Source: Candidatus Accumulibacter sp. ACC003 (GTDB lineage: Bacteria; Pseudomonadota; Gammaproteobacteria; Burkholderiales; Rhodocyclaceae). From it: a DNA stretch of 64,000 bases. The stretch spans positions 124,001 through 188,000 of the forward strand of contig NZ_CAJQTX010000001.1 of assembly GCF_907163085.1 (NCBI RefSeq). The letters run 5' to 3'. The notes beneath the pieces are model-generated. The model did not search any database and was not told where the DNA came from. It saw only the letters and a list, made by a program, of their open reading frames with translations. The translations under genes were made by a program, and so were the position numbers. Positions 46,845 through 62,576 of this stretch are shown here, piece by piece (within the stretch, counting starts at the first letter, position 1; each line of letters opens with the position of its first letter).

Positions 46845-46876
46845 TGATAGTTACGTGGCCGGCCACGTAACTATCA
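46845..46876. repeat. perfect 32-bp palindrome at RIT junction (copy A)
   Basis: TGATAGTTACGTGGCC followed by its exact reverse complement. It lies between the transposase C-terminus and the RIT end; its right arm (CTATCA) is the first 6 bp of the RIT terminal repeat. An identical palindrome is at 59183-59214. Confidence 0.9.
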
Positions 46877-47015
46877 GTATGTGGCGCTCAGAAATATGTG
46901 GCGACGAATCCGGCACCCCGCTTGGTTGCGGGCGGTCGGTCAAATTTACGCCACATAAGTTTGCGCGGATCAGGATCACGATGATCGTCCATCTTGTTGA
47001 AGACGGAGATCGATC

Positions 47016-48260
47016 ATGATTGAAGAGCTATTCAAGCGCCCCACGGCGCTGGCGCGCTACCGGGAAGGCCCGCTTGCAAAAGCGCGAGAACAATTTCTCG
47101 ACCGATGTGCCAACGATGGTTACTCACGCTCGATGCTGCAGAAGATCGCTTGGGTACTCCTGGCCGTCGCAGAGGGCCTTGACCTTGAGCATGGGAAGGT
47201 CAGTACGCAGGACATTGAGCGCGCTGCGGACTGCAGACGACGGTTGAGACATCAGCCCATCCGTACCGAGGACTCGGTGTGGACACGCCAGATGTTTATC
47301 CACTTCGCGACGGAATGGCTGCGATACCTGGACTGCCTTCAGCAGACCGAAGAGGCACCGAACGCCTTCATGGCTCAGATTGACGCCTTTGCCTGCCATA
47401 TGCGCGACGAACGAGGCCTGTCGCCAGTGACGATCAGCACGCGTTGTGAGCGCCTGACCTGGTTCTTTGCCGGACTGTGCCCGCCCCGGGATACGTTGAG
47501 CGCGATTACCGTTGCCGATGTCGACGCCTTCATTGAGTCGAAGAGTAAGAAAGGTTGGACACGTGCCTCTTTGGCCGCGTTGTCCAGTTCGTTGCGCAGC
47601 TTCTTCGCCTTCGCCGAAGCCCGCGGGTGGTGCCCTTCGGGAATCACTGCGGTCATCGAATCGCCGCGGCTCTATACCCGTGAAGGTATCCCGGAAGGCC
47701 CAGGCTGGGACGACGTCCAGCGCCTCCTTGTCGCCACAAGCGGTGATCGACCGGCAGATATTCGCGACCACGCCATCCTGATGTTGCTCGCGGTCTACGG
47801 CCTGCGGCGAGGCGAGGTCGCGGCGTTGCGGCTGGACGATCTGGATTGGGAAGGCGAGTCGATCCACATCACGCGACCCAAGCAACGTCGTGCTCAGCGT
47901 TATCCTTTGCTGCACGCCGTGGGCGAGGCGATCTTGCGCTACCTGCGCGAAGTGCGACCGCGCTGCGGGCATCGGGCATTGTTCTTGACGCTCGGCGCAC
48001 CCATTCGCCCGCTGTCGGCGCCGAGCATTACGCCGGTTGCGCATGCCCATCTGAGTCGCCTGGGCCTCACCCTGTCGCCACGTGGGGCGCACTGTTTGCG
48101 GCACGCCTGTGCCAGCCACCTTCTCGCGTCGGGCTTCTCCCTGAAGCAGATTGGCGACCATCTCGGACATCGCAGCGCCAATTCGACCCTGAGCTATACC
48201 AAGGTCGACCTGACGGGGCTGCGGCAGGTGGCCGAACTCGATCTGGGGGCACTGCTATGA
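47016..48260 (+). CDS. ritA: tyrosine recombinase, RIT first gene (copy A)
   Basis: A 414-residue tyrosine recombinase, the longest of the trio. The N-terminal SAM-like core-binding domain is at about 110-200, and the catalytic domain starts at about 225. Catalytic residues: Arg in VYGLRRGEVAALRL, His-x-x-Arg in GAHCLRHACASHLL, His in DHLGHRSANSTLSY and the nucleophile Tyr in that same segment (SYTKVDL). GGAG lies 8 bases before ATG 47016. It overlaps the next gene by 4 bp. Confidence 0.88.
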   Translation: MIEELFKRPTALARYREGPLAKAREQFLDRCANDGYSRSMLQKIAWVLLAVAEGLDLEHGKVSTQDIERAADCRRRLRHQPIRTEDSVWTRQMFIHFATEWLRYLDCLQQTEEAPNAFMAQIDAFACHMRDERGLSPVTISTRCERLTWFFAGLCPPRDTLSAITVADVDAFIESKSKKGWTRASLAALSSSLRSFFAFAEARGWCPSGITAVIESPRLYTREGIPEGPGWDDVQRLLVATSGDRPADIRDHAILMLLAVYGLRRGEVAALRLDDLDWEGESIHITRPKQRRAQRYPLLHAVGEAILRYLREVRPRCGHRALFLTLGAPIRPLSAPSITPVAHAHLSRLGLTLSPRGAHCLRHACASHLLASGFSLKQIGDHLGHRSANSTLSYTKVDLTGLRQVAELDLGALL

Positions 48261-49198
48261 CGCTCTCCGCGCAGGTTTCCATGTACATCGCTCATAAGCG
48301 CGCCTTGGGATACAAGTTCGAGACCGAGGAGGCGATCTTCAAATCCTTCTGCCGGACCGTCGGTGAAGGCCCACTGGCCAGCGTTGAAGGCAAGTCCGTG
48401 CTCGCTTTCCTGAACGGCGACGGACCGGTGAGCGCGTACTGGGTCAAGAAGTACCACGTGCTTTCGGGGTTCTACCGCTTCGCTCTGGCACGTGGTTTGG
48501 TCAGCAGCGTGCCGTTGCCGTACAGCCTACCGAGGCTGGACACTCCCGTCTTCGTGCCCTACATCTACTCCCACGACGAACTCAAGCGCCTGCTCGACGC
48601 GGTCCCCATCGCCTGTACCGGCCGAGCGCCAATCGACGCGTATGTCTTCAGAGCCTTGCTCTTGCTGCTCTACGGGGCGGGGCTCCGCATCAGCGAAGCC
48701 GTCTCGCTGAACATCGCTGATGTCGACCTCGAGCAAGCCCGCCTGATCGTCCGGGGGACGAAGTTCTACAAGAGCCGGCTTGTGCCACTGGGCAAGGATC
48801 TGACGCATGTCATGAGCGAGTATGTGGGCAAACGCAACGACCGCCACTCAGGCGGCGGGGACACGCCGTTCTTCTGCTTCCGGAACGGCGCGCCGCTGAG
48901 CAAGTCTGCCGCGCGCTGCACCTTTCGACGCCTGCGAACTGCCGCCGGCGTTGCCCGCGACGGTGGCTCAAGAGAGCAGCCACGACTCCACGACTTGCGT
49001 CATTCGGCCGCCGTTCATCGGCTCGTCGCCTGGTATCGCAGCGGCGCAGACCTGCACGATCTCCTGCCCAAGCTGGCGACCTACCTCGGCCACGTGAACC
49101 TGTCGGCCACGCAACACTATTTGACGATGACGCCTGACTTGCTTCAAGAGGCAAGCCGGCGATTCGAACGTTACGCCATGGAGAATGATCATGACTGA
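48257..49198 (+). CDS. ritB: tyrosine recombinase, RIT second gene (copy A)
   Basis: A 313-residue tyrosine recombinase: Arg in YGAGLRISEAVSLN, Lys region GTKFYKSRLVPLGK, HDLRHSAAVHRL, YLGHVNLSATQHYLTM (Tyr). ATG 48257 overlaps the ritA stop (ATGA); the long open frame from 47846 is not used. Copy B differs by at least one residue (FLNGDGP here, FLNGNGP there). Confidence 0.9.
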   Translation: MTLSAQVSMYIAHKRALGYKFETEEAIFKSFCRTVGEGPLASVEGKSVLAFLNGDGPVSAYWVKKYHVLSGFYRFALARGLVSSVPLPYSLPRLDTPVFVPYIYSHDELKRLLDAVPIACTGRAPIDAYVFRALLLLLYGAGLRISEAVSLNIADVDLEQARLIVRGTKFYKSRLVPLGKDLTHVMSEYVGKRNDRHSGGGDTPFFCFRNGAPLSKSAARCTFRRLRTAAGVARDGGSREQPRLHDLRHSAAVHRLVAWYRSGADLHDLLPKLATYLGHVNLSATQHYLTMTPDLLQEASRRFERYAMENDHD

Positions 49199-50186
49199 CC
49201 ACGCTTTGCTCGGACCTTGGGTCCGGCGTTTCCTGATCGACTATCTGGTGCAGGAGCGCAACCTTTCGATCAACACCCAGAGAAGCTATCGCGACATGCT
49301 GGCGCTGCTCCTCCCCTACGTTGGCGATCATCTCAAGAAATCGGTGGACCGACTGACCGTCGAAGATCTGTCGGTAGATCTGGTCCGCCAGTTCCTCGCT
49401 GATCTGGAAGCGAGGCGTCGCTGTATCGCCGCCACTCGCAATCAACGCCTCGGCGGCCTTCACGCCTTGGCTCGATTCATCGGCCAGAACAGTCCCGAGC
49501 ACATCGCGTGGTGCGCACAGATCCGGCTGATCCCCTTCAAGAAAACGGCTCACCCTGGCATCACCTATCTCGAGAAACCGGAAATGGATGCGATCCTGGC
49601 GTCTCCGGATCGCCATACCGCTCTGGGTCGGCGCGACTACGTGCTGTTGCTCTTCCTCTACAACTCGGGGGCGCGCGCGAGCGAAGCGGCGGAGGTCCGG
49701 GTCAGCGCCATTGACTGGTATGCTCAATGCGTTCGAATCACCGGCAAGGGTAACAAACGGCGTGCCTGTCCATTGTGGCCAAACACCTTGGATGAGTTGC
49801 AGTTCCTGGTGGCAAACCGCGCGCCGGAGCAGCGTCTGTTTCTGAACCGCAACGGTCAGCCTCTTACTCGCTTCGGCATCCATACGCTGGTCGAACGCTA
49901 CGCATCCAGAGCTTGTGCGCAATCACCGTCGCTGGCCAGCAAGCGAGTCAGCCCGCACGTGATTCGCCACACCGCGGCAACCCATCTGCTACGGTCCGGC
50001 GCCGACATCAACACTGTCCGTGCCTGGCTGGGTCACGTTTCGCTCGCCACGACAAATCTCTATGCAGAGACCGATCTTGCGACCAAGGCCCGTGCACTGG
50101 CCATGTGCGCGCCGGCGGCAGAGGGCGCGATCAATAAGTCCTGGCGCCAACAGCCAGACCTGCTGGCTTTCTTGCGCGGTTTGTAG
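49191..50186 (+). CDS. ritC: tyrosine recombinase, RIT third gene (copy A)
   Basis: A 331-residue XerC-like recombinase: N-terminal RNLSINTQRSYRDMLALLLP, Arg in YNSGARASEAAEVRV, Lys in ITGKGNKRRACPLW, PHVIRHTAATHLLRSG, WLGHVSLATTNLYAE (Tyr). ATG 49191 has GGAG 7 bases upstream; ATG 49185 is an alternative. It overlaps ritB by 8 bp. The stop is followed by the inner box at 50195. Confidence 0.9.
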   Translation: MTDHALLGPWVRRFLIDYLVQERNLSINTQRSYRDMLALLLPYVGDHLKKSVDRLTVEDLSVDLVRQFLADLEARRRCIAATRNQRLGGLHALARFIGQNSPEHIAWCAQIRLIPFKKTAHPGITYLEKPEMDAILASPDRHTALGRRDYVLLLFLYNSGARASEAAEVRVSAIDWYAQCVRITGKGNKRRACPLWPNTLDELQFLVANRAPEQRLFLNRNGQPLTRFGIHTLVERYASRACAQSPSLASKRVSPHVIRHTAATHLLRSGADINTVRAWLGHVSLATTNLYAETDLATKARALAMCAPAAEGAINKSWRQQPDLLAFLRGL

Positions 50187-51217
50187 ACAAAGTTTATGTG
50201 GCATTTGCCCGGCTCCCGGCCTCGTGTCTTCAAGAGAATGAGGCCCGGGGCCACATATCTTTGAGCGCCACATACTGATAGGGCGAATACGGCAAGGTTG
50301 TCTGATGCACGACACCCAGACGGGCGAGGCCGCTGACGGTCTCTTCGGCGAGCATGGCGGCGCCGTTGTCGGTCATCAGGGCTCGTGGCAATCCGCGCTT
50401 CATGAAGGCCTGCGACAAGCCGTGCACGAGGCTCTCGGCGGTCTCGTCGAGATACCACTGCAGATGGCAGACCAGCCGGGAGCGATCGTCGATCACGCTA
50501 AACAGCAGCGGCTTGACCCACAGGCCGGTTCGGGTCAGAACCTTGCGTGAGGCGTGATGGAAGTCGAGATGCCAGAGTGCGCCGACATAGTCGACTTCGT
50601 AGCTCCTGACCTCCAGCCGGTCGAGCCGATCCCGGGCCAACAGCGCCCCGGCGGTTGCCCGTTTGGCGGACGCCTGGCGGAACATTCCCCGGGCCTTGAG
50701 ATAGCGACGGATCGTCGGATACGACGCCAGGGAAGAGTCGCTCCCGGCCAGTGCGACACGGAGGTTGTCGAAGTGCAGTTGCACCGTCCAGCCCGGATGC
50801 TCGTGGTACTGGGCCGTCAGAATCTGGATGGCCACGGGCGTGATGCTCGTGAACCGACCGACGTTGCTGCGCAGGCGATTCCTGAGAACCGCTACCGGAT
50901 CGGCGGCCGCGCGGGCCGCGTAGTACCAGCGCTCAATTGTCGAGGCGCCAAAGCGAACCTCCTGTCCTGATACCGGATGCCGCCAGGACTTGGTCGACAG
51001 GGCGCGCAGCGCCGGGGATAACTCGCCGGCGGCGGGCGGAGCCGCCAGCAAGGGGCCGATGATCGCAAAGCGCAGGCGCGCCCAGCGATCGCGTTTGAGG
51101 GGATCGATGAGAGAGGTCAAAAGGGTCTTCCAGAAGGTCGGTGCCGGCGGCACCAGGACGGGAAGTGAAGGCTACAAGCCCTTGAGGAACGGGCCTATCG
51201 ACATCTTCTGCGGGTCA

Positions 51218-51838
51218 TCAGCACCCCCCACGCAACGTGCTCGGCCGGACCGTGATCGGCGCCAGAAAGAGGAGAAGATGCCCCATGGCTTCTGTGTCAT
51301 CGCCGACAAAACGTTCCAGCAAACGGCTCGGGAAGTCGTCAGTTACCGGCGGCATGAAGCGCGCACAACACGCTTGCCATAGCGCGGTCAGCGGAAATTG
51401 TTCTTTCCACCACTGGCGCCAACGCGCCAGGGTAAGCAACGGAATCGCCAGGGTCGTGGAGAGCCGCGCCGCTGCTGGGTTCTGCCCGGCATGCCGGGCA
51501 GAACCCAGCACTACCAGCAGCGCCAGATAGACGCGCCGGCCCAGGAAACGTACGGACATCGAGGTCGTCCGACGGCGACAATCGTTGCAGCAGAAGCTGA
51601 ACCGCCGAGCAAAGTCGGCGCGCACTTCCGGCGGGCACCCACGGGGCTTTCGCGGATAGTCAGCGCGGTGCAGAACGCCGCCGCACGCACATCCTGCCGC
51701 TCGCGCCTCGTCCGCCAGCTCCGTGTCAACACGCAGCAACCATCGAAAAAAGTGGGGTTTTTGCAGGAGGGCATGGCACACTGGACTGGTCTCTTGGCAT
51801 CGAAACCAGAGACTCCCCCAACGGGTGCGTTTGTTCAA
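51218..51838 (-). CDS. zinc-ribbon accessory protein of the transposon (copy A, DUF6431-like)
   Basis: Up to 206 residues. Visible are Cys pairs in GCACGGVLHRADYPRKPRG and FSFCCNDCRRRTTSMSVRFLG, then a helical C-terminal half. It is a homologue of the 62751-63284 gene. It lies 64 bp upstream of the DDE transposase in the same direction, giving the order zinc protein, transposase, ATPase. The start is uncertain: TTG 51838 or GTG 51781. A TniQ-like targeting role is only an analogy. Confidence 0.65.
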   Translation of the reverse strand: MNKRTRWGSLWFRCQETSPVCHALLQKPHFFRWLLRVDTELADEARAAGCACGGVLHRADYPRKPRGCPPEVRADFARRFSFCCNDCRRRTTSMSVRFLGRRVYLALLVVLGSARHAGQNPAAARLSTTLAIPLLTLARWRQWWKEQFPLTALWQACCARFMPPVTDDFPSRLLERFVGDDTEAMGHLLLFLAPITVRPSTLRGGC

Positions 51839-51907
51839 GCCCCCTGAGGGGGGTCACCACCTCAACATCACCCTGCTTGACCAGTCAGGCAGCGAATTCC
51901 ACCACGA

Positions 51908-52465
51908 TTGGTGACCGTGCTCACTACGCCCGAGGCGCTGCCGGGCTTGAACGAAAGTCCATGGCCCCGACTGGTGGGCCAGGACTGGGTAGACGTCAAG
52001 ATCTCGAAAGATTCGACGCTGGTCGCCGCCCGCAAGCTTGACGGCAGTCTGTGGGTGAGCCAGGAACGAGCCATGAAAGTGCGCATGGAGCCGCTGGGTT
52101 GCGGCTTCGCCGACATGGCTTTTGCGTACGACGAGGCCCAGGGTATCCACCTGCTAGCGCTACGCTCGGATGGTACTTTGCTCGACTACCATAGCGACAG
52201 GCGTGATGACGCCAACTTACGCCGCAACCTGCTCGTGCGTAAACCCGACGTTTTGGTGAGCGGTGGAGTGAAGCTGTTCCAGGAGAACGACTACTGGGGC
52301 AGTATAGGCGCGGCTGTCTTCCTGTTGCGCCAGGACGGCACGCTGTGGCGATGGTATTGGCGCTTCGGGACGCAGTACCCCAAGGAGGGTGTGCCGCCAG
52401 AACAACGCTTGGGCCGGATTGACTTTCCGCAAGAGTGGTTTCTGGGAGTTGCGCCGCAGCGCTGA
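51908..52465 (+). CDS. RCC1/BNR-repeat-like protein fragment
   Basis: About 180 residues with recurring propeller-type motifs DGSLWVSQ, SDGTLLDYHSD and QDGTLWRWYWRFG. Similar proteins are usually longer, and the fragment begins right after the transposon end, so its N-terminal part has probably been cut off. No signal or start context is convincing. The function is unknown. Confidence 0.5.
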   Translation: MVTVLTTPEALPGLNESPWPRLVGQDWVDVKISKDSTLVAARKLDGSLWVSQERAMKVRMEPLGCGFADMAFAYDEAQGIHLLALRSDGTLLDYHSDRRDDANLRRNLLVRKPDVLVSGGVKLFQENDYWGSIGAAVFLLRQDGTLWRWYWRFGTQYPKEGVPPEQRLGRIDFPQEWFLGVAPQR

Positions 52466-52770
52466 GCGCTGTCTTTCTCGTTCTGCTGTCAGCCGTCTTG
52501 ATGCACCCAGCAGCTGACACGGCGATAGCCACTTGGCGTGCACCGGTTGATGTACTCCAGCAAAGGCTGGATTGAGGCCTTCTGACGCCAGTTGTGGGCG
52601 GAATCACGGCTCCCAGAGGCGATTCGGAGCAAGAACGTGGCGGAATCGCTCGGAAAAGCGGTAATTAGTCGTACACATTGAACAGAATCGGTCGCGCTTA
52701 ACGCGCAGTGGCTGGATTCACGAAAACCTCATGTAATTCGAGGTGCCAGGTAGGTTGGCGGCAGTGCCCA
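52466..52770. other. gene-free region
   Basis: 305 bp between the RCC1-like fragment and the parE-type toxin stop. No gene, repeat or RNA is supported. Confidence 0.4.
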
Positions 52771-53046
52771 TCAGCGATCCTCTCGGGTGTGCCACAGCCG
52801 CAGCACGTAGATGGCAGTTTTCTTAATTTCATAGCGCATCTCGTAATGCCCCACGCGAATCCGGCGCACCTCGCGCGGCTCGAACTCATCGATCCGTTCG
52901 CCGATGCGTGGGTTGGCCAGCAAGGCAGACGGCGCGGCCGCTAGCGCCTGTACGGTGCGTGCAGCCGCCGGTTTGTTTACCGGGGCCAGAAATTCGTATA
53001 GACGAGCCAGGTCGGAGAGTGCCTTGCTGGTCCATTTCAGGTCCAT
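52771..53046 (-). CDS. RelE/ParE-family toxin
   Basis: A 91-residue toxin: MDLKWTSKALSDLARLYEFL, NPRIGERIDEFEPREVRRIRVGHYEMRYEI and YVLRLWHTRED, the ParE/RelE pattern. ATG 53046 shares one base with the antitoxin stop (TAATG), so the pair is coupled. Confidence 0.9.
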   Translation of the reverse strand: MDLKWTSKALSDLARLYEFLAPVNKPAAARTVQALAAAPSALLANPRIGERIDEFEPREVRRIRVGHYEMRYEIKKTAIYVLRLWHTREDR

Positions 53047-53315: not shown

Positions 53316-53357
53316 TGCGAGATCTCCTTCGTTTGTGCGACGGCTCTGCTTATTTGT

Positions 53358-53372
53358 GATTGAAATACAATC
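53358..53372. promoter_or_regulatory. candidate antitoxin operator
   Basis: GATTG-AAATA-CAATC, a perfect inverted repeat in AT-rich DNA about 43 bp upstream of the RHH antitoxin start. This is the expected place for autoregulation; function is inferred. Confidence 0.45.
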
Positions 53373-53533: not shown

Positions 53534-54175
53534 CTAGCGTGCTTTATTTTCCGTTCTCTGAGATGACCCTTGGTACATGGCCCAAATGCGTTTGACCTGA
53601 CTTTCGCTACACCCAGCCAGCTTGGCGGTTTTCTGGATCGTATGGCCCGCCCGGCGTAGGGCAACTATGCGCTGGTGTGTGGTGGCATCCGGCTTCCGAC
53701 CGGTGTATTTGCCGGACGCTTTGGCCAGTTGCACGCCCTGACGCTGCCGCTCGCGGCGTGTCTCGTAGTCGTCGCGAGCCATTTGCAGGGCCAGCTTGAG
53801 CAGAAGTTCCTGCACCGACTCCAGCACAATCTTGGCAACGCCGTCGGCGTCAGCCGCCAAGTCGGAGAGATCGACCAAACCCGGTACGGCCAGCCTCGCC
53901 CCTTTGGCCCGGATCGAGCCGACCAGTTGCTCGGCCTCGGCCAATGGGAGTCGGCTGATGCGGTCGATCTTCTCGGCGACCACCACTTCGCCCGGTTGCA
54001 GATCGGCGATCATCCGCAGCAGTTCAGGTCGGTCGGCGCGGGCACCGGATGCTTTCTCACGGTAGACGCCGGCGACGTAGTAATCGGCCGCCCGGGTACT
54101 GTGCTCGATCTCGGCCTGACGGGTGAGGTTCTGTTCATCGGTGCTGACGCGGAGATAGATGCGGGCGACTTTCAT
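53534..54175 (-). CDS. serine resolvase
   Basis: A 213-residue serine recombinase: ARIYLRVSTDEQNLTRQAE (catalytic Ser), VVVAEKIDRISRLPLAEAEQL, LLLKLALQMARDDYETRRERQ and HTH HTIQKTAKLAGCSESQVKRIW. ATG 54175 is chosen; the open frame to 54400 extends through intergenic repeats. Upstream DNA 54195-54310 has TTGGCC-containing repeats that could be its res site. Confidence 0.9.
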   Translation of the reverse strand: MKVARIYLRVSTDEQNLTRQAEIEHSTRAADYYVAGVYREKASGARADRPELLRMIADLQPGEVVVAEKIDRISRLPLAEAEQLVGSIRAKGARLAVPGLVDLSDLAADADGVAKIVLESVQELLLKLALQMARDDYETRRERQRQGVQLAKASGKYTGRKPDATTHQRIVALRRAGHTIQKTAKLAGCSESQVKRIWAMYQGSSQRTENKAR

Positions 54176-54194
54176 GGAGCCTGGCCAAGATGGG

Positions 54195-54310
54195 TATACG
54201 GAACTTGGCCAACTATAGATCAAGTAGCCAATAATGTGAAAGGCAATGTAAGTTGGCCAGCGTCTATTTGACCATCCCAATTGGCTAGAAACGAGGAAAA
54301 GTTGGCCTGC
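54195..54310. promoter_or_regulatory. candidate res site with TTGGCC repeats
   Basis: The motif ACTTGGCCAAC and relatives (GTTGGCCAGC, AATTGGCTAG, GTTGGCCTGC) recur four times between the divergent resolvase and vapB genes. Subsite-like spacing and location fit a resolvase target; not proven. Confidence 0.4.
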
Positions 54311-54321
54311 TTCGGCAGATT

Positions 54322-54341
54322 GTATATACTTGCGTATATAC
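54322..54341. promoter_or_regulatory. duplicated palindromic operator of vapBC
   Basis: Two copies of the palindrome GTATATAC separated by TTGC, 28 bp before the vapB start. VapB AbrB-type antitoxins bind such repeats to repress their own promoter. Confidence 0.5.
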
Positions 54342-54368
54342 TTTTGCGCTGCGCCAGGGAGAACCGTG

Positions 54369-54662
54369 ATGATCGAGACACGTATTGCCAAGCTGTTCAA
54401 GAACGGCGCCAGTCAGGCGGTGCGTCTCCCCTCGGACTTCCGCTTTGAAGGGGACGAGGTCTATGTCACGCGCGACGATGCAACCGGCGATGTCGTGCTG
54501 TCCAACCGGCCGGGGGCCAAAACCTGGAACGAATTTTTCGAGTTGTTGCATGAAGTCGACGTTCCCGCAGATTTCATGGCCGAGCGCCCGCTGAATGTGT
54601 TGCCTCAAGAACGAGGCGTCTTCGACGACGATCTCTCTACGAACAACAAGGTGAGCCGCTAG
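54369..54662 (+). CDS. vapB: VapB-type AbrB-domain antitoxin
   Basis: A 97-residue protein: IAKLFKNGASQAVRLPSDFRFEGDEVYVTRD is the AbrB/VapB swapped hairpin; the acidic C-terminal half would bind toxin. GGGAGA lies 9 bases before ATG 54369. vapC starts 3 bp after its stop. Confidence 0.92.
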   Translation: MIETRIAKLFKNGASQAVRLPSDFRFEGDEVYVTRDDATGDVVLSNRPGAKTWNEFFELLHEVDVPADFMAERPLNVLPQERGVFDDDLSTNNKVSR

Positions 54663-54664
54663 CG

Positions 54665-55066
54665 ATGCTGCATATGCTGGACACCGACACGGCAAGCTAC
54701 CTGATCAAGGGAAAATCGCGCGCGATAGAAACCAAGCTGGCGGCCCTCATGCCGTCGATGGTTTGCATCTCGGTGATGACGCGGGCGGAATTGCAATATG
54801 GCCTGAAGCGATTGGCGGGCGACCATCGTTTGCATCTGGCGGTGCGCCAGTTCTTCAAGATCGTCCGCATCCTGCCGTGGGACGCCGATGCCGCCGACTG
54901 GTACGCCGAAATCCGCCACCAACTCGTTAGCACGGGGCAACCGATCGGCGAACTGGATATGATGATCGCCGCACACTCGTTGTCAGCCGGTGCGGTGTTA
55001 GTCACCAACAACAGCCGCCATTACGAGCGGATCGCTGCACCGCTAATCCTGGACAACTGGGCATAG
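54665..55066 (+). CDS. vapC: VapC-type PIN-domain toxin
   Basis: A 133-residue PIN ribonuclease: MLDTDTASYLIKGKS (Asp), ISVMTRAELQYGLKRL (Glu), GELDMMIAAHSLSAGAVLVTNN (Asp residues). VapC toxins of this type typically cut initiator tRNA. The frame is intact. Confidence 0.93.
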   Translation: MLHMLDTDTASYLIKGKSRAIETKLAALMPSMVCISVMTRAELQYGLKRLAGDHRLHLAVRQFFKIVRILPWDADAADWYAEIRHQLVSTGQPIGELDMMIAAHSLSAGAVLVTNNSRHYERIAAPLILDNWA

Positions 55067-55408: not shown

Positions 55409-56398
55409 TTAGTGGGTCTGCAAGGAAGCGATCAGTTTGTCCGGCACGGTGAAACGTCCTCGCTTGAGCCGTAACGGCGTCATTCCCTCAATCGTCTCGA
55501 TCTTCTCCATGGGGTCTGCCCGCAGGTAAACCTCGGTCGTCTGCATCTGCGCGTGGCCAAGCCAAAGCGAGACCTTGCGCAGATCCTTGGTCGCCTGGAA
55601 AAGCACCATGGCGCAGGTGTGTCGCAGCACGTGCGGCGAAACCTGTTTATCGCGTAGCGATGGGCAATATTCAGCGGCCGTCTGGGCGTACTGCTTCAGA
55701 ACGAAGGCAAAGCCAGCGCGTGTCATCGCCTGTCCGCGTGCATTGACGAACAGCTCCGGTGTCAACACATTGCCGCGAATCGCCAGCCATGCGCGCAAGT
55801 CGACCGCAGCTTGCTTCCACAGAGGCAATGCACGTTCTTTCCGGCCCTTACCCGTGATGCGTATCGTCGGCACCGGCTGCAACGCCAGGTCAGACAAAAG
55901 CAGTCCAGTCAACTCGGATACGCGCAGCCCAGCGGCCAAGCTGATATGCAACATGGCACGATCCCGGATGCCGATGCGGGTACTTACATTTGGGGCGTTC
56001 AGGACGGCTTCCATTTCCACCTGAGTCAGGTAGTTGATGAGGACGGTGTCTGTCTTCTTCGACGGAATTGCCTGGATACGCAGACTCTGCTCCAGCAACG
56101 ATGGATCACGGTACTCGAGATAGCGCATGAATGACTTGATGGCGGCAAGCCGGGCGTTGCGAGTTCTGGCGGTGTTGCCGCGAGAAGCCTCGAGGTCAGC
56201 AAGAAAATCCATCACCAACGGCGCGTCAAGCTGCTCCAGAAAGAGCTTGGATGGCGTGACCTTGAAGCGGGCACTGGCGAATTCGAATAACAGGCGAAAG
56301 GTATAGGCATAGCTGTCGCAGGTATGGGGACTGGCACCGCGTTCTAACGGCAACCGCTCAAGGAGGTATGCTGTGATATGAGGGGCTATTGGGGTCAT
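55409..56398 (-). CDS. tyrosine recombinase, third gene of a second RIT-like array
   Basis: A 329-residue XerC-type recombinase: Arg in LAAGLRVSELTGLLLSDLAL, Lys in ITGKGRKERALPLWK, PHVLRHTCAMVLFQ, WLGHAQMQTTEVYLRA (Tyr). It is only distantly similar to ritC at 49191 but of equal length and position. Its start overlaps the upstream truncated recombinase by 4 bp. Confidence 0.88.
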   Translation of the reverse strand: MTPIAPHITAYLLERLPLERGASPHTCDSYAYTFRLLFEFASARFKVTPSKLFLEQLDAPLVMDFLADLEASRGNTARTRNARLAAIKSFMRYLEYRDPSLLEQSLRIQAIPSKKTDTVLINYLTQVEMEAVLNAPNVSTRIGIRDRAMLHISLAAGLRVSELTGLLLSDLALQPVPTIRITGKGRKERALPLWKQAAVDLRAWLAIRGNVLTPELFVNARGQAMTRAGFAFVLKQYAQTAAEYCPSLRDKQVSPHVLRHTCAMVLFQATKDLRKVSLWLGHAQMQTTEVYLRADPMEKIETIEGMTPLRLKRGRFTVPDKLIASLQTH

Positions 56399-56802
56399 GA
56401 TGCACCTCCTTGTAAATAGGCTTCGCAGGCACTGGCGATGTCGCTCGTCAACTGTGGCGTGCTGTCGAGATACCAGTAGGTATCGGAGACATGGGCATGG
56501 CCCATGTAGGTAGTGAGCGCCAGCGTGTGCTGCGCGACCCTGTCGCGCGACTCGGGACAGGTTTGCAGTGCCCGGACAGCAAAGCTATGGCGCAAATCGT
56601 GAAGTCGTGGACGGGGTCTGTCAGGGGGAGCGTTTACACCGGCAGCGGCCAGCACCGCCTGGAAGGTCTCGGCGGCAATCGCATAGCCCAACGGGTGCCC
56701 GCCCCGATGGGAAACGAACAGATGCTCGTCGGCGCCGACCACTTTGGTGCGGTGAACGAGATACTGGCCAATGGCGCTCGCCACACTGTCGGTAAATGTC
56801 AA
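56395..56802 (-). pseudogene. tyrosine recombinase C-terminal fragment (ritB-like)
   Basis: About 135 residues carrying RLHDLRHSFAVRALQT, TTYMGHAHVSDTYWYLD (Tyr) and the C-terminal tail. The first catalytic Arg and the DNA-binding domain are missing, so the gene is 5' truncated near 56802. It resembles the second RIT gene in its catalytic end. The first recombinase of this array is gone. Confidence 0.75.
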
Positions 56803-57318
56803 GATAGTTGTCGCCTGAGTTCATGCTGCCAATGGCATACTCTTGCTGGTAGAGGTAGCAGCGGCCACGACGCCATCCCGTTCCGGGTTGAGCGTCACCG
56901 CAGCGATGGGCGACCAGTTCCGAGTCTGTCGACTCCAGCGCGCAGGGTTCTTCGCACGCGCGGCTTGGTGAGTGTGATCACCCGATTTGATGTTCTGATG
57001 TTCACCTACGGCGATGGTTGGTAGGGGTGATGGTAGGCGACCCTGGGGCTCCGCCCCAGACCCCGCGCTCGTCGCGAGGCAGCCGCCGGGGATGAACAAG
57101 TTCTTCCCCGGCAACTGCTCGCAAGCATCGGGACCCTCCAAGGCGTCAAGAGGCTTTCGCGGCATAAACGGGCCGATGAAGCCGGCCCATTTATTCCACG
57201 GTCCTCTTGACGCCTTTCCTGGTCAAAGAGCCACCCCCTTCTGTCGGCTCGTTCGTCGAGAGGGCCAAGACGACGCCTCCCGAGCGGACTTTCCGTCCGT
57301 CGTTCCTGTCGCCGCTGG
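56803..57318. other. debris region: IS3 OrfB tail and inverted repeat
   Basis: No intact gene. Minus-strand codons near 56823-56960 read ARNPARWSRQTRNWSPIAAV and TLNPERD, the C-terminus of an IS3-family OrfB. A perfect 14-bp inverted repeat (AAGGCGTCAAGAGG at 57140-57153, complement at 57203-57216) encloses a 49-bp loop. Confidence 0.5.
56823..56960 (-). pseudogene. IS3-family transposase C-terminal remnant
   Basis: About 45 codons (NPARWSRQTRNWSPIAAVTL then NPERDG) match the usual end of IS3-group OrfB proteins. The catalytic domain is absent. It joins the truncated recombinase at about 56802, so this IS probably removed the start of that array. Confidence 0.55.
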
Positions 57319-57585
57319 TCATTCCGTGACCGTCATGAATCCGTACCGCTGACCGAAAGCCAGCCACGCCCGTCGGGCCGAAGAACGAGCCGGGTCGGAT
57401 ACCTCCACTCGCCCCAGGAGGTCGAGCAGCGCCCGAAGTGGCGCGTCGGTCTCATTGCCGATGGCGTCAATGACCGTTCTTCGGTCGCGCATCCGCTGGG
57501 CACGCTTGCGCTCTCGGTCTGTCATCGCTCGCTCGCCCTGGGGTGGGCGGCCTCTTTTCGTGACGGTCACCAAGGGCTCGGTCAT
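57319..57585 (-). CDS. small basic protein of unknown function
   Basis: 88 residues with an N-terminal KRGRPPQGERAMTDRERKRA segment, a pattern common in small plasmid- and island-borne proteins. A perfect AGGAGG lies 5 bases before ATG 57585. No domain is recognised; DNA binding is suggested only by the basic first half. Confidence 0.55.
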   Translation of the reverse strand: MTEPLVTVTKRGRPPQGERAMTDRERKRAQRMRDRRTVIDAIGNETDAPLRALLDLLGRVEVSDPARSSARRAWLAFGQRYGFMTVTE

Positions 57586-57742
57586 CTTGTCCTCCTGTTT
57601 TTGTGCCCGTCACGGGAAGAACCGAACGTTCTGCGGTAGCCCCTCCCAAGGTCCGCAGGCGTCGTTCCGCCCGGGGCAGCGGTCAAGGGTCTTGGGGCGT
57701 GATCGCACAACAGCGCGGGCCCGTCGCCTGGCGGGAGGGTCG

Positions 57743-58588
57743 TCACCGGCCGGCCGCCACACGACGCAGCGCAGGGGCCTCGGGTGACGCGAAGACCTCG
57801 AGGTAAAGTTTCTCGTCGAGTTGCGGCAACTCACGCTGCGCCGCGGCGGCGAGCAGTTCGGCCGCGAGGGTGGTCAGGATGCGGTAGTTACCGGCGGCGT
57901 GATCGCACAGCGTATGACAGAGTGCGGGGGTCATCAGGCTGGCGTTCCCGGCGCGGCTCAGCAGATGGGTCAGGCAGGCGAGTAGCTCGTCACGCGACGC
58001 ATACTCGGTGGCGAGGCGGGTACGGATGCGGGAGCCGAGCGGGATCAACTCCTCACGACGCAGCTTCTCGATGAGACGCGCATCGCCGGCCAGCACCACA
58101 CACAGGAGCGGCTGCGAATCGAACCGCGCACTGGCGAGCAGGCGCAACTCGCAAAGAACGGCCGGACTCATCTCCTGCGCCTCATCGACCAGCAACACCA
58201 CCCGGCGACGGGTCGTTTCCAGATGCGCGAACCAGACTTCGCGCAGAGCCTTGAAGCCACCCCAGCGGTTATGCGGGCGCAAGGGCACGGTGAAGATGTC
58301 GCCCATTTCGCGATAGAAATCGGCCAGGTTGCTCTGCGGATGGTTGATCGCGCCGACGGTGACGTCCGACTGACTTCCCAGACGGTCGGCCAGGAGGCGC
58401 AAGGCCACGCTTTTGCCGGTGCCTGGATCGCCGTGGATCATCGCGAAGCCCCCTTCGCGGATCTGAGCGTGTTCGATTCGCCAGCAGAAGTTCTCGATCC
58501 GGGGCGGAACAAAGAGGGCCTCGATTGGCAATTCAGGGGAGAAGGGATTCCACTTCAGCCCGTAGAGGGCGAGGAGCCGATGGTTCAT
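57743..58588 (-). CDS. ExeA/TniB-like AAA ATPase of transposon (copy B)
   Basis: A 281-residue near-identical copy of the 45405-46250 ATPase, in the same orientation. Walker A GDPGTGKSVALRLL and Walker B VVLLVDEAQEM are unchanged. Differences include RTRLATEY for RTRLAIEY and EAPALRR for ETPAQRR. It overlaps the transposase C-terminus by 4 bp. Confidence 0.88.
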   Translation of the reverse strand: MNHRLLALYGLKWNPFSPELPIEALFVPPRIENFCWRIEHAQIREGGFAMIHGDPGTGKSVALRLLADRLGSQSDVTVGAINHPQSNLADFYREMGDIFTVPLRPHNRWGGFKALREVWFAHLETTRRRVVLLVDEAQEMSPAVLCELRLLASARFDSQPLLCVVLAGDARLIEKLRREELIPLGSRIRTRLATEYASRDELLACLTHLLSRAGNASLMTPALCHTLCDHAAGNYRILTTLAAELLAAAAQRELPQLDEKLYLEVFASPEAPALRRVAAGR

Positions 58589-59182
58589 GCCGGCTCCTTG
58601 TCGGCGGACGGCAAATACGCAGGCGGCAAGCCCGTCGCAGCGTAGTCAGCGAGCAGCTGGCGCAGCAGCGGCGCGATCCCGGTAGACGGCGGCGCCAGAG
58701 CCTCTGTCGTGACGGGCGCGAGGCGCCGACGCTGACCATCGGCGTTGGCCGACTTGTCGAGCACCTTGACCGGGCAAAGCACGACGCCGGTGCTCGGATC
58801 CACGAGATCGACGTGCCTGAGGTCCCAGCGGGCGTAGCGTAGATGAACCACCGGCAGGTGCCGATAACTGGCGGGGATCTCGAAGCGTATGCCAGCCAGA
58901 CTGACCGTGCCATCGGCACGCCGCTGGCGGCGCGCGACCTCAATCCGGAAGGCGGCCTGCAGCGTGCCAGTATCCGGGCAGTCACGGCGAACACTGGGCC
59001 CAGCGAGATAGCGCGCCAAGGGGGTCGCATCGATCTCGGAATGGAGCGTACGGTGGTACTCTTGTTCGACCCAGGCCTGGCTGGCCTGATTGAGCAGGTC
59101 CAGCGTCAGCAATTTCTCGCCTTCGAGCATCGCCATCAGGCGCCCTTCGATGCGCCCCCAAAACGATTCCTGTTTGGCATTT
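58585..59182 (-). pseudogene. DDE transposase C-terminal part (copy B)
   Basis: It corresponds to 46247-46844 of copy A and begins at YQNAKQESFWGRIEGRLMAM. The frame is cut at the same base by the palindrome and the RIT. Unlike copy A, the N-terminal part is not on the far side of the RIT (the sequence diverges at 62577), so this copy has lost it. Confidence 0.82.
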
Positions 59183-59214
59183 TGATAGTTACGTGGCCGG
59201 CCACGTAACTATCA
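59183..59214. repeat. perfect 32-bp palindrome at RIT junction (copy B)
   Basis: Identical to 46845-46876 and in the same position relative to the transposase C-terminus, although the RIT beyond it is inverted. Confidence 0.9.
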
Positions 59215-59303
59215 GTATGTGGCGCTCAAAGATATGTGGCCCCGGGCCTCATTCTCTTGAAGACACGAGGCCGGGAGCCGGGCAAATGCCACATAAACTT
59301 TGT

Positions 59304-60299
59304 CTACAAACCGCGCAAGAAAGCCAGCAGGTCTGGCTGTTGGCGCCAGGACTTATTGATCGCGCCCTCTGCCGCCGGCGCGCACATGGCCAGTGCACGG
59401 GCCTTGGTCGCAAGATCGGTCTCTGCATAGAGATTTGTCGTGGCGAGCGAAACGTGACCCAGCCAGGCACGGACAGTGTTGATGTCGGCGCCGGACCGTA
59501 GCAGATGGGTTGCCGCGGTGTGGCGAATCACGTGCGGGCTGACTCGCTTGCTGGCCAGCGACGGTGATTGCGCACAAGCTCTGGATGCGTAGCGTTCGAC
59601 CAGCGTATGGATGCCGAAGCGAGTAAGAGGCTGACCGTTGCGGTTCAGAAACAGACGCTGCTCCGGCGCGCGGTTTGCCACCAGGAACTGCAACTCATCC
59701 AAGGTGTTTGGCCACAATGGACAGGCACGCCGTTTGTTACCCTTGCCGGTGATTCGAACGCATTGAGCATACCAGTCAATGGCGCTGACCCGGACCTCCG
59801 CCGCTTCGCTCGCGCGCGCCCCCGAGTTGTAGAGGAAGAGCAACAGCACGTAGTCGCGCCGACCCAGAGCGGTATGGCGATCCGGAGACGCCAGGATCGC
59901 ATCCATTTCCGGTTTCTCGAGATAGGTGATGCCAGGGTGAGCCGTTTTCTTGAAGGGGATCAGCCGGATCTGTGCGCACCACGCGATGTGCTCGGGACTG
60001 TTCTGGCCGATGAATCGAGCCAAGGCGTGAAGGCCGCCGAGGCGTTGATTGCGAGTGGCGGCGATACAGCGACGCCTCGCTTCCAGATCAGCGAGGAACT
60101 GGCGGACCAGATCTACCGACAGATCTTCGACGGTCAGTCGGTCCACCGATTTCTTGAGATGATCGCCAACGTAGGGGAGGAGCAGCGCCAGCATGTCGCG
60201 ATAGCTTCTCTGGGTGTTGATCGAAAGGTTGCGCTCCTGCACCAGATAGTCGATCAGGAAACGCCGGACCCAAGGTCCGAGCAAAGCGTGGTCAGTCAT
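59304..60299 (-). CDS. ritC: tyrosine recombinase, RIT third gene (copy B)
   Basis: A 331-residue copy of the 49191-50186 protein with no visible residue change. All catalytic residues are present (GARASE, ITGKGNKR, VIRHTAATH, WLGHVSLATTNLYAE). It overlaps ritB by 8 bp. Confidence 0.9.
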   Translation of the reverse strand: MTDHALLGPWVRRFLIDYLVQERNLSINTQRSYRDMLALLLPYVGDHLKKSVDRLTVEDLSVDLVRQFLADLEARRRCIAATRNQRLGGLHALARFIGQNSPEHIAWCAQIRLIPFKKTAHPGITYLEKPEMDAILASPDRHTALGRRDYVLLLFLYNSGARASEAAEVRVSAIDWYAQCVRITGKGNKRRACPLWPNTLDELQFLVANRAPEQRLFLNRNGQPLTRFGIHTLVERYASRACAQSPSLASKRVSPHVIRHTAATHLLRSGADINTVRAWLGHVSLATTNLYAETDLATKARALAMCAPAAEGAINKSWRQQPDLLAFLRGL

Positions 60300-61233
60300 G
60301 ATCATTCTCCATGGCGTAACGTTCGAATCGCCGGCTTGCCTCTTGAAGCAAGTCAGGCGTCATCGTCAAATAGTGTTGCGTGGCCGACAGGTTCACGTGG
60401 CCGAGGTAGGTCGCCAGCTTGGGCAGGAGATCGTGCAGGTCTGCGCCGCTGCGATACCAGGCGACGAGCCGATGAACGGCGGCCGAATGACGCAAGTCGT
60501 GGAGTCGTGGCTGCTCTCTTGAGCCACCGTCGCGGGCAACGCCGGCGGCAGTTCGCAGGCGTCGAAAGGTGCAGCGCGCGGCAGACTTGCTCAGCGGCGC
60601 GCCGTTCCGGAAGCAGAAGAACGGCGTGTCCCCGCCGCCTGAGTGGCGGTCGTTGCGTTTGCCCACATACTCGCTCATGACATGCGTCAGATCCTTGCCC
60701 AGTGGCACAAGCCGGCTCTTGTAGAACTTCGTCCCCCGGACGATCAGGCGGGCTTGCTCGAGGTCGACATCAGCGATGTTCAGCGAGACGGCTTCGCTGA
60801 TGCGGAGCCCCGCCCCGTAGAGCAGCAAGAGCAAGGCTCTGAAGACATACGCGTCGATTGGCGCTCGGCCGGTACAGGCGATGGGGACCGCGTCGAGCAG
60901 GCGCTTGAGTTCGTCGTGGGAGTAGATGTAGGGCACGAAGACGGGAGTGTCCAGCCTCGGTAGGCTGTACGGCAACGGCACGCTGCTGACCAAACCACGT
61001 GCCAGGGCGAAGCGGTAGAACCCCGAAAGCACGTGGTACTTCTTGACCCAGTACGCGCTCACCGGTCCGTTGCCGTTCAGGAAAGCGAGCACGGACTTGC
61101 CTTCAACGCTGGCCAGTGGGCCTTCACCGACGGTCCGGCAGAAGGATTTGAAGATCGCCTCCTCGGTCTCGAACTTGTATCCCAAGGCGCGCTTATGAGC
61201 GATGTACATGGAAACCTGCGCGGAGAGCGTCAT
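60292..61233 (-). CDS. ritB: tyrosine recombinase, RIT second gene (copy B)
   Basis: A 313-residue copy of the 48257-49198 protein with Asn for Asp in FLNGNGPVS. Catalytic motifs are intact. It overlaps ritA by 4 bp. Confidence 0.9.
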   Translation of the reverse strand: MTLSAQVSMYIAHKRALGYKFETEEAIFKSFCRTVGEGPLASVEGKSVLAFLNGNGPVSAYWVKKYHVLSGFYRFALARGLVSSVPLPYSLPRLDTPVFVPYIYSHDELKRLLDAVPIACTGRAPIDAYVFRALLLLLYGAGLRISEAVSLNIADVDLEQARLIVRGTKFYKSRLVPLGKDLTHVMSEYVGKRNDRHSGGGDTPFFCFRNGAPLSKSAARCTFRRLRTAAGVARDGGSREQPRLHDLRHSAAVHRLVAWYRSGADLHDLLPKLATYLGHVNLSATQHYLTMTPDLLQEASRRFERYAMENDHD

Positions 61234-62474
61234 AGCAGTGCCCCCAGATCGAGTTCGGCCACCTGCCGCAGCCCCGTCAGGTCGACCTTGGTATAGCTCA
61301 GGGTCGAATTGGCGCTGCGATGTCCGAGATGGTCGCCAATCTGCTTCAGGGAGAAGCCCGACGCGAGAAGGTGGCTGGCACAGGCGTGCCGCAAACAGTG
61401 CGCCCCACGTGGCGACAGGGTGAGGCCCAGGCGACTCAGATGGGCATGCGCAACCGGCGTAATGCTCGGCGCCGACAGCGGGCGAATGGGTGCGCCGAGC
61501 GTCAAGAACAATGCCCGATGCCCGCAGCGCGGTCGCACTTCGCGCAGGTAGCGCAAGATCGCCTCGCCCACGGCGTGCAGCAAAGGATAACGCTGAGCAC
61601 GACGTTGCTTGGGTCGCGTGATGTGGATCGACTCGCCTTCCCAATCCAGATCGTCCAGCCGCAACGCCGCGACCTCGCCTCGCCGCAGGCCGTAGACCGC
61701 GAGCAACATCAGGATGGCGTGGTCGCGAATATCTGCCGGTCGATCACCGCTTGTGGCGACAAGGAGGCGCTGGACGTCGTCCCAGCCTGGGCCTTCCGGG
61801 ATACCTTCACGGGTATAGAGCCGCGGCGATTCGATGACCGCAGTGATTCCCGAAGGGCACCACCCGCGGGCTTCGGCGAAGGCGAAGAAGCTGCGCAACG
61901 AACTGGACAACGCGGCCAAAGAGGCACGTGTCCAACCTTTCTTACTCTTCGACTCAATGAAGGCGTCGACATCGGCAACGGTAATCGCGCTCAACGTATC
62001 CCGGGGCGGGCACAGTCCGGCAAAGAACCAGGTCAGGCGCTCACAACGCGTGCTGATCGTCACTGGCGACAGGCCTCGTTCGTCGCGCATATGGCAGGCA
62101 AAGGCGTCAATCTGAGCCATGAAGGCGTTCGGTGCCTCTTCGGTCTGCTGAAGGCAGTCCAGGTATCGCAGCCATTCCGTCGCGAAGTGGATAAACATCT
62201 GGCGTGTCCACACCGAGTCCTCGGTACGGATGGGCTGATGTCTCAACCGTCGTCTGCAGTCCGCAGCGCGCTCAATGTCCTGCGTACTGACCTTCCCATG
62301 CTCAAGGTCAAGGCCCTCTGCGACGGCCAGGAGTACCCAAGCGATCTTCTGCAGCATCGAGCGTGAGTAACCATCGTTGGCACATCGGTCGAGAAATTGT
62401 TCTCGCGCTTTTGCAAGCGGGCCTTCCCGGTAGCGCGCCAGCGCCGTGGGGCGCTTGAATAGCTCTTCAATCAT
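61230..62474 (-). CDS. ritA: tyrosine recombinase, RIT first gene (copy B)
   Basis: A 414-residue copy of the 47016-48260 protein, apparently unchanged. The promoter-proximal DNA between the start and the lost element end is kept to 62576, so expression may persist. Confidence 0.88.
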   Translation of the reverse strand: MIEELFKRPTALARYREGPLAKAREQFLDRCANDGYSRSMLQKIAWVLLAVAEGLDLEHGKVSTQDIERAADCRRRLRHQPIRTEDSVWTRQMFIHFATEWLRYLDCLQQTEEAPNAFMAQIDAFACHMRDERGLSPVTISTRCERLTWFFAGLCPPRDTLSAITVADVDAFIESKSKKGWTRASLAALSSSLRSFFAFAEARGWCPSGITAVIESPRLYTREGIPEGPGWDDVQRLLVATSGDRPADIRDHAILMLLAVYGLRRGEVAALRLDDLDWEGESIHITRPKQRRAQRYPLLHAVGEAILRYLREVRPRCGHRALFLTLGAPIRPLSAPSITPVAHAHLSRLGLTLSPRGAHCLRHACASHLLASGFSLKQIGDHLGHRSANSTLSYTKVDLTGLRQVAELDLGALL

Positions 62475-62576
62475 GATCGATCTCCGTCTTCAACAAGATG
62501 GACGATCATCGTGATCCTGATCCGCGCAAACTTATGTGGCGTAAATTTGACCGACCGCCCGCAACCAAGCGGGGTG

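What the first reader, a model, noticed from the sequence alone, without database searches (positions are those of the whole stretch)
46845..62576. One RIT element sits at the same nucleotide in both orientations
Copies A and B of the host transposon each have the RIT inserted after the same base of the transposase C-terminus, next to the same palindrome. In A the ritA end is adjacent to the palindrome; in B the ritC end is. The internal sequence has no length change between copies (paired coordinates sum to 109490). Either the RIT inverts in place by recombining its 32-bp terminal repeats, or it inserted twice at one exact site in opposite directions. RIT transposition mechanism is poorly known, so a natural flip pair in one replicon is informative.
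Basis: partly seen in the sequence, partly recalled or inferred. Interest (0 to 1): 0.78.

Follow-up and report, generated by a model that had tools for sequence, protein, structure and literature searches.

The report
RIT transposon inserts either way round
A small bacterial transposon with three recombinase genes carries a 20-base palindrome beside one end; in the cases compared, the palindrome lands on the same side of the target while the transposon itself lands either way round, which suggests how this poorly understood kind of element may move.

Summary
The flip pair is real. Copies A and B, and a third copy elsewhere in the genome (C8), carry one RIT at one base pair of a Tn6049-like transposase gene, A in one orientation and B and C8 in the other. 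The palindrome beside it is not part of the target: an empty transposon copy lacks it, so it came in with the RIT.

A survey shows a general layout: target–6 bp–P20–6 bp–RIT–6 bp–target. P20 is a 20-bp palindrome next to either the ritA or the ritC end. In 58 of 58 pairs of homologous targets P20 lies on the same target side, while the RIT has the same orientation in 30 pairs and the opposite one in 28.

Where P20 is asymmetric its strand can be read. In four independent contrasts it stays tied to the RIT when P20 switches ends. That argues against simple in-place inversion and favours a circular intermediate with two mirror-image attachment cores flanking P20, either of which can integrate.

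The circle was not observed. For the window pair itself the evidence for separate insertions is good but not decisive. RITs are known and a flanking palindrome has been mentioned in print. I found the side and strand rules in no paper held here; the main RIT paper (Ricker 2013) is not held.

The parts
45401..46844 (-). Left part of the Tn6049-like host transposon of copy A (its own left end is missing): AAA ATPase (45405-46250) and the C-terminal part of the interrupted transposase
   Evidence: PF13401; TIGR03015; empty copy E has a 491-aa rve transposase and a 281-aa ATPase; truncation
46845..46850 (.). T6, the 6-bp target spacer TGATAG on the P20 side, copy A
   Evidence: present once in the empty copy E
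46851..46870 (.). P20, perfect 20-bp palindrome TTACGTGGCCGGCCACGTAA brought in with the RIT, copy A
   Evidence: absent from empty site; only at 3 RIT copies in the genome
46871..46876 (.). Y6, inverted 6-bp spacer CTATCA between P20 and the RIT (ritA end), copy A
46877..50275 (+). RIT element copy A, 3399 bp, P20 next to the ritA end
47016..48260 (+). ritA tyrosine recombinase, 414 aa
   Evidence: PF00589 E=1.9e-24, PF02899
48257..49198 (+). ritB tyrosine recombinase, ATG overlapping the ritA stop
   Evidence: PF00589 on the longer ORF 47846-49198; start read
49185..50186 (+). ritC tyrosine recombinase, 333 aa
   Evidence: PF00589 E=4e-31
50276..50281 (.). X6, 6-bp spacer TGATAG on the RIT side, copy A
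50282..51923 (-). Right part of the host transposon of copy A with the N-terminal part of the transposase (rve)
   Evidence: homology to C8 and E ends near 51923-51925
56969..59182 (-). Left part of the host transposon of copy B, including its left end (AAA ATPase 57743-58588)
59183..59188 (.). T6 TGATAG, copy B
59189..59208 (.). P20 TTACGTGGCCGGCCACGTAA, copy B
59209..59214 (.). Y6 CTATCA between P20 and the RIT (ritC end), copy B
59215..62576 (-). RIT element copy B, opposite orientation, P20 next to the ritC end, cut 37 bp short of the ritA end; ritC 59304-60305, ritB about 60292-61233, ritA 61230-62474

Best explanation
It is a RIT (recombinase-in-trio) transposon whose mobile unit is P20 + 6 bp + RIT, not the RIT alone. 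Shown: the layout target–T6–P20–Y6–RIT–X6–target; three 6-mers that are copies or near-copies of one sequence (T6, its reverse complement, T6); P20 absent from empty sites; P20 on a constant target side with the RIT in either orientation; and, where readable, P20 keeping its strand relative to the RIT when it changes ends. Inferred: the unit moves through a circle in which the ritC end, 6 bp, P20, 6 bp and ritA end follow one another. Because P20 is (nearly) palindromic, the two junctions read alike, as RIT-end–spacer–P20-arm, so the circle has two equivalent, oppositely facing attachment cores. A Rit recombinase complex crosses either core with the target's 6-bp spacer. Spacer polarity fixes P20 to one target side. 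Which core is used decides which RIT end lies next to P20, and so the RIT orientation. The window's A and B/C8 are then separate insertions at one transposase codon through alternative cores.
For: (1) The empty site lacks P20 in the window's host transposon and in an E. coli methyltransferase target. (2) A P20 of at least 8/10 pairs lay 6 bp outside one end in 40 of the 61 loci left after setting aside 37 without an inverted repeat and 11 without flank (2 of the 40, L103 and L143, have a short flank); the same search at shifted positions gave 9 of 437. (3) Over 40 insertions the three 6-mers differ by 0.575-0.80 bases on average, against about 4.2 when shuffled between loci. (4) 58 of 58 homologous-target pairs have P20 on the same target side, RIT orientation same in 30 and opposite in 28; all 10 target groups (37 of 59 insertions) hold both orientations. 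(5) P20 strand stays with the RIT in 11 of 17 informative end-switched pairs; the other 6 all compare two E. coli P20 lineages that are also inverted between same-side copies. (6) Of 24 end-switched pairs with RITs at least 90% alike, 10 had both flanks alignable, and in 10 of 10 both flanks are less alike than the RITs; window A/C8: host 42/3098, RIT 1/3399.
Against: No circle or tandem junction was seen: the junction pattern has 0 matches in viral contigs and none in held loci by the scan. The window P20 is a perfect palindrome, so its strand cannot be read. Host DNA touching the RIT is identical between A and C8 (0 of 566 bp, against 42 of 2532 further out; p=0.0004), as if a tract around the RIT had been shared. 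B and C8, which may be one insertion copied with its host, also show fewer differences in the RIT (1/3362) than in the host arm (6/1450; p=0.004), so that contrast alone is not proof. By reading, at least five RITs with good ends (L060, L086, L088, L133, L142) show no P20. P20 orientation changed once in E. coli, so some inversion does occur.
Confidence: 0.68

Rival explanations
1. In-place inversion. The RIT inserted once and flips by recombination between the inverted 6-bp cores on its two sides (Y6 and X6), leaving P20 where it is.
For: Y6 is the exact reverse complement of X6 in 26 of 40 insertions, so substrates for inversion exist. In E. coli P20 itself is inverted between two lineages. 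A and C8 share a 566-bp SNP-free host tract around the RIT.
Against: A single flip would invert P20 relative to the RIT; the four independent contrasts (M. huakuii, S. medicae, two E. coli lineages) show the same strand. Flanks of flip pairs are more diverged than the RITs in 10 of 10 measurable pairs. Among the pairs examined none had flanks as identical as the RIT.
Confidence: 0.2
2. Copy-in by a single-stranded, folded intermediate. T6-P20-Y6 is a hairpin, as integron attC sites are (recalled), and Y6 is made by copying T6, so P20 and its spacers are remade at each insertion.
For: T6-P20-Y6 is a perfect 32-bp palindrome in the window. Related SE elements are thought to move by a strand-biased copy-out route (PMC10214605 passages). 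Spacers follow the target: TGATAG in the window, TGGTAA in L066, an element whose RitC is 99% identical.
Against: Complementarity holds for the outer five pairs (58-59 of 59) but falls in the inner five (31-51 of 59), as expected for protein-binding arms rather than a long stem. Y6 differs from the complement of T6 in 17 of 40 cases.
Confidence: 0.1
3. Assembly or ordinary homologous recombination: the pair arose from mis-assembly or from RecA exchange among the host transposon copies.
For: Multi-copy repeats invite such errors; host SNPs unique to C8 cluster in 46180-46439, like a conversion tract.
Against: Copies differ by SNPs and by an IS66-type insertion with a target repeat. The same rule recurs in 10 target groups from unrelated records.
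Confidence: 0.02

Closest known systems
RIT elements (C. metallidurans type; Van Houdt et al. 2012, PMC3414803)
   Same: Three overlapping tyrosine recombinase genes ritABC, about 3.5 kb, terminal inverted repeats; one reported case (A. ferrooxidans) is also in the transposase gene of a Tn6049-related transposon; a palindromic sequence overlapping the repeats is mentioned (passages)
   Different: The passages seen give no empty-site comparison, no 6-bp rule, no account of P20 side, strand or orientation
Strand-biased circularizing integrative elements (SE; PMC10214605)
   Same: Tyrosine recombinases only, 6-bp spacer between inverted end motifs, 6-bp footprint from the donor, a few preferred targets (passages)
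   Different: SEs carry intA-tfp-intB-srap; no P20 and no either-way insertion in the passages seen
Tn554
   Same: Site-specific tyrosine-recombinase transposon; TnpC is said to influence orientation of transposed copies (passages)
   Different: Different gene set (tnpABC); no P20 described in the passages seen
GInts (PMC5385486)
   Same: Three recombinase-like genes, 6-7 nt staggered cuts, circular form (passages)
   Different: Need a fourth gene, carry cargo islands, no P20 described in the passages seen

Membership tests
RIT element | Three adjacent tyrosine recombinase genes with short overlaps, in the order ritA-ritB-ritC | tested here: met
   (PF00589 in all three; ATGA overlap ritA/ritB)
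RIT element | About 3.5 kb with terminal inverted repeats of about 28-34 bp | tested here: met
   3399 bp; repeats 46871-46902 and 50250-50281, 30 of 32 identical, of which 6 bp are spacer
RIT element | Near-identical copies at more than one place in a genome | tested here: met
   A, B, C8
RIT element | Catalytic Arg-His-Arg-His-Tyr residues in all three proteins | tested here: met
   read by eye in the translations; the motif is recalled, not from a call
SE element | intA-tfp-intB-srap gene set | tested here: not met
   three recombinase genes fill the element between the ends; no tfp or srap model was searched
SE element | 6-bp spacer between inverted end motifs | tested here: met
SE element | Strand-biased circle, donor copy retained | not testable with these tools
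   needs PCR or deep sequencing
Invertible DNA switch (in-place inversion) | Orientation changes while everything outside, P20 strand included, stays fixed | tested here: not met
   P20 strand follows the RIT in 4 of 4 independent contrasts from other genomes; not readable in the window itself
Tn6049-like host transposon | Transposase plus gspA-like AAA ATPase, about 3.5 kb | tested here: met
   491-aa rve transposase and 281-aa ATPase in copy E, about 3.87 kb shared with B and C8; description from PMC2864759 passages; not compared with the Tn6049 sequence itself

The most novel reading that the evidence does not exclude
RITs use an undescribed integration architecture: a circular intermediate with two mirror-image attachment cores around a small palindrome, so that the target dictates where the palindrome goes but nothing dictates the orientation of the element. 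P20 is itself the smallest member of the system, a 20-bp invertible unit made of two outward-facing recombinase arms, and the three junctions it creates may be why three recombinases are kept. Several RIT families aim this machinery at the codons just before the catalytic glutamate of other elements' DDE transposases.
Probability: 0.5. Interest if true: 0.84.

Novelty: new variant of a known kind. Interest (0 to 1): 0.72.

Why it matters
How RITs move was shown in none of the papers seen here; Van Houdt 2012 says their mobility remains to be demonstrated and finds it hard to see how three recombinases share one reaction (passages). The layout found here gives exact ends, a mobile unit that includes P20, a 6-bp crossover, and a prediction (two usable cores, circle with P20) that PCR can test directly. 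It also explains natural flip pairs without an inversion switch, and it supplies ready cases for comparison: E. coli WP4-S18-ESBL-07 holds at least two copies in each orientation in one genome.

Tried and rejected
Palindrome as a target feature: rejected, since empty sites lack it. P20 as chance: rejected by shifted controls. P20 as a palindrome of the host transposon: rejected, since P20 is missing from E; the host's own 38-bp palindrome (51473-51510) is elsewhere, with matching inverted stretches in C8 and E.

Search for the circle: the junction pattern in viral contigs gave 0. A second pattern (P20 arms plus one RIT end) gave 2 contigs, both already partly held as L155 and L152. A scan of held loci for P20 with arms on both sides found four cases (L067, L068, L074, L075), all with a RIT on one side and target on the other.

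More relatives: RIT DNA in 395 family genomes found only weak matches of up to 151 bases outside the own genome, but only two candidates per genome were scored and even the own C8 copy was missed. The RitC profile in 369 class genomes found only the own genome at E<=1e-90 (at most five candidates scored each). The transposase in 395 family genomes matched in 20 (at most three candidates scored each); partial matches in G370 and G056 were not followed and no further RIT insertion was identified.

RIT-versus-flank divergence as sole proof of separate insertions: weakened by the B/C8 pair. I report both. A first reading that B and C8 share DNA outside the transposon, and so are one segmental duplication, was dropped after one search showed that this stretch also occurs in E, hence lies inside the transposon; my odds did not depend on it and are unchanged.

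Rows dropped or unresolved: the genome-contig scan kept the best 80 of 375 relatives. In one search, of 109 loci 37 gave no inverted repeat, 11 had no flank, and 21 had repeats but no P20 of at least 8/10. Of those 21, 9 (L077, L079, L110, L158, L162-L166) were added by hand after reading their ends with a looser arm rule; L149, L150, L175 and the seven E. coli copies were also placed by hand. So the 59 insertions are not a blind sample. L103 was dropped (flank too short). L062, L173, L174, L176 and L177 were fetched but their ends or P20 were not resolved. L061, L074, L112, L124, L129, L131, L140 and L148 showed P20-like sequences but were not counted. Copy B was not counted. In one search, 22 of 59 insertions had no homologous partner. 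Pairs are not independent, above all the seven E. coli copies. Perfect palindromes cannot be tested for strand. The 38:21 excess of P20 at the ritA end is unexplained and may be sampling. The target-motif pattern was written.

Papers: PMC10214605, PMC3414803, PMC2864759, PMC5385486, PMC8138268 and PMC10322971 were seen as passages only. Ricker 2013 and Nielsen 2017 are not held; nothing of them was read. That I found the side and strand rules nowhere in print rests on searches of the held library only.
Full report
What is there. Copy A is a complete RIT at 46877-50275 with ritA, ritB and ritC, all three matching the phage-integrase family. Copy B (59215-62576) is the same element in the other orientation, 2 mismatches in 3362 bp, cut 37 bp short of its ritA end. 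A third copy on contig C8 has B's orientation, a complete ritA end and the far host flank; its ritA is split by an IS66-type element with an 8-bp target repeat. The host is a Tn6049-like transposon: transposase with an rve domain plus a gspA-like AAA ATPase. It spans about 3.87 kb in the empty copy E; copy A lacks its left 770 bp. B and C8 share 5177 bp at 99.83% that begins at the transposon's left end: either the composite transposed as a unit or the RIT entered both copies in the same orientation. A known precedent is the RIT of A. ferrooxidans in the transposase gene of a Tn6049-related transposon (PMC3414803, passages).

The empty site changes the reading. Host copy E (about C1:551057-554926) has no RIT and reads TTTGGCATTT-TGATAG-GGCGAATACGG. 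The filled sites read TTTGGCATTT-TGATAG-TTACGTGGCCGGCCACGTAA-CTATCA-[RIT]-TGATAG-GGCGAATACGG, with the RIT as ritA..ritC in A and ritC..ritA in C8. So a 20-bp palindrome (P20) and an inverted copy of the 6-bp target spacer arrived with the RIT. The 20-mer occurs only at the three RIT copies, even with 3 mismatches allowed.

The layout is general. I collected RitC relatives from genome contigs (the best 80 of 375), viral contigs (11) and some named plasmid and E. coli records. Of 109 loci examined, 37 gave no inverted repeat and 11 no usable flank. Of the other 61, 40 had a near-palindrome (at least 8 of 10 pairs) 6 bp outside one end; the same search at positions further out gave 9 of 437. With L103 dropped and C8 added, over 40 insertions the outer 6-mer, the reverse complement of the middle one and the far one are alike: mean mismatch 0.75 (outer-middle), 0.80 (outer-far) and 0.575 (middle-far), against about 4.2 when shuffled between loci. 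All three agree in 19; Y matches X but not T in 7; Y matches T but not X in 4; T matches X only in 1; all differ in 9. The middle 6-mer may thus be the footprint of the previous target, as in SE elements (inference; SE rule from PMC10214605 passages). The outer five pairs of P20 are complementary in 58 or 59 of 59, the inner five in 31-51, and the arms resemble the RIT ends. At least five RITs with good ends show no P20 (L060, L086, L088, L133, L142; read).

The side rule. For 59 insertions with both junctions placed (38 with P20 at the ritA end, 21 at the ritC end) I compared 200-bp flanks. In 58 of 58 homologous-target pairs P20 is on the same side of the target; the RIT is in the same orientation in 30 and the opposite in 28. 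The 37 insertions that have a homologous partner fall in 10 groups, and each group has both orientations; 22 have no partner. The 59 are not a blind sample and the pairs are not independent. The groups include the window's transposase (9 insertions), IS21-like transposases, IS110, a strawberry-notch gene of sphingomonad plasmids, and the E. coli yhdJ-type methyltransferase (annotations; motifs; the IS21 label for unannotated targets is recalled from the motif).

The strand rule. A perfect P20 cannot show its strand; imperfect ones can. If the RIT flipped in place beside a fixed P20, then in the RIT's own frame P20 would read reversed when it sits at the other end. In M. huakuii (L058/L057), S. 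medicae (L158, L163, L164/L162), E. coli 550 with AR_0017 (L157, L168/L170) and E. coli WP4-S18-ESBL-07 (L167, L169/L171, L172) it reads the same. By pairs this is 11 of 17 same strand (one of them, L162/L175, only by 5 against 9 mismatches); the 6 reversed pairs all cross between the two E. coli lineages, whose P20 is reversed also between copies on the same side (L157 and L167), so P20 inverted once on its own. The result is what a circle opened on either side of P20 would give.

Separate insertions. Of 24 end-switched pairs with RITs at least 90% alike, 10 had both 200-bp flanks alignable, and in all 10 both flanks are less alike than the RITs; in one, L157/L171, one flank is nearly as alike (99.5% against 99.64%). 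Longer alignments agree: 100.0% against about 90% in viral contigs L149/L150, 99.8% against 84% and 75% in Sphingobium L159/L161, 98.5% against 80% in L093/L091, and no mismatch (gapped) against 75% and 68% in Marinobacter L083/L084. In the window, A and C8 differ at 42 of 3098 host positions and 1 of 3399 RIT positions (p=6e-13). Two results weaken this last case. B and C8, perhaps one insertion copied with its host, also have 6 of 1450 host-arm against 1 of 3362 RIT differences (p=0.004), five of the six inside one 260-bp stretch of C8 that looks like a conversion tract. And the 566 host bases next to the RIT carry no A/C8 difference (p=0.0004 against the rest), so a tract around the RIT may have been shared between copies. 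I put about 0.7-0.75 on separate insertions for A and B/C8.

How it most likely works. The unit P20-6-RIT circularises by recombination between the direct 6-bp spacers T6 and X6 (inferred). In the circle P20 is flanked on both sides by a spacer and a RIT end, so there are two equivalent cores facing opposite ways. Integration pairs one core with the target spacer; polarity of the 6 bp places P20 on one side, and the choice of core sets RIT orientation. This accounts for the side rule, the strand rule, the three 6-mers, the exact site and the mixed orientation. The circle itself is unseen, and the RITs without P20 are not explained.

Targets. In 16 of 58 insertions with both flanks the 6-mer lies in the codons just before [N/K]-x-[K/R/S]-x-E, the catalytic-Glu motif of rve/DDE transposases (the motif's role is recalled), always in the same frame and strand relative to P20; the same pattern at other offsets in these short stretches occurs 3 times in 3552 (the pattern was written). 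Others lie in the VL[DP]FAGSG motif of the E. coli methyltransferase or in YVKPY[VK]RNKTDAADAEAI of IS110. Conserved codons in widespread mobile genes would make a target that is always available (inference).

Novelty. RITs, their repeats and a flanking palindrome are known (PMC3414803, passages). I found no account of the side rule, strand rule or two-core circle in the held library, but Ricker et al. 2013, the main RIT paper, is not held and may mention part of this.

Noticed in passing
46845-46850 and 50276-50281; 58 insertions: RIT 6-bp sites fall in codons of conserved catalytic motifs of target genes: 16 of 58 lie directly before the catalytic-Glu motif of rve transposases, all in the same frame.
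   Followed up: partly
window 55409-56802 (-): Two overlapping tyrosine recombinase ORFs (135 and 329 aa), probably the remnant of another RIT between copies A and B.
   Followed up: partly
L009 17333 to L010 48 (C8:17333-20048): IS66-type element inside ritA of the C8 RIT copy, with an 8-bp target repeat.
   Followed up: yes
window 56969-62145 and C8:12156-17332: Copy B and the C8 copy share 5177 bp at 99.83%, starting at the transposon's left end, as if the transposon carrying the RIT had itself moved.
   Followed up: partly
L157, L167-L172: E. coli RIT in yhdJ-type DNA methyltransferase genes of chromosome and plasmids carries a fourth gene (191 aa in L157, no Pfam match) between ritC and the right end.
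   Followed up: partly
L157 2495-2514 and L167 3895-3914: P20 itself is inverted between two E. coli RIT lineages while RIT orientation and side are the same, so the 20-mer can flip alone.
   Followed up: partly
window 51473-51510 and 63313-63342: Perfect palindromes of 38 and 30 bp; the first lies in the host transposon, with matching inverted stretches in C8 and E.
   Followed up: no
L134: A RIT inserted at a SLYG-LKW-NPF site that resembles the start of the AAA ATPase of Tn6049-like elements, rather than in the transposase.
   Followed up: no
window 54665-55066 (+) and 53534-54400 (-): PIN-domain protein and a serine resolvase between the two RIT copies.
   Followed up: no
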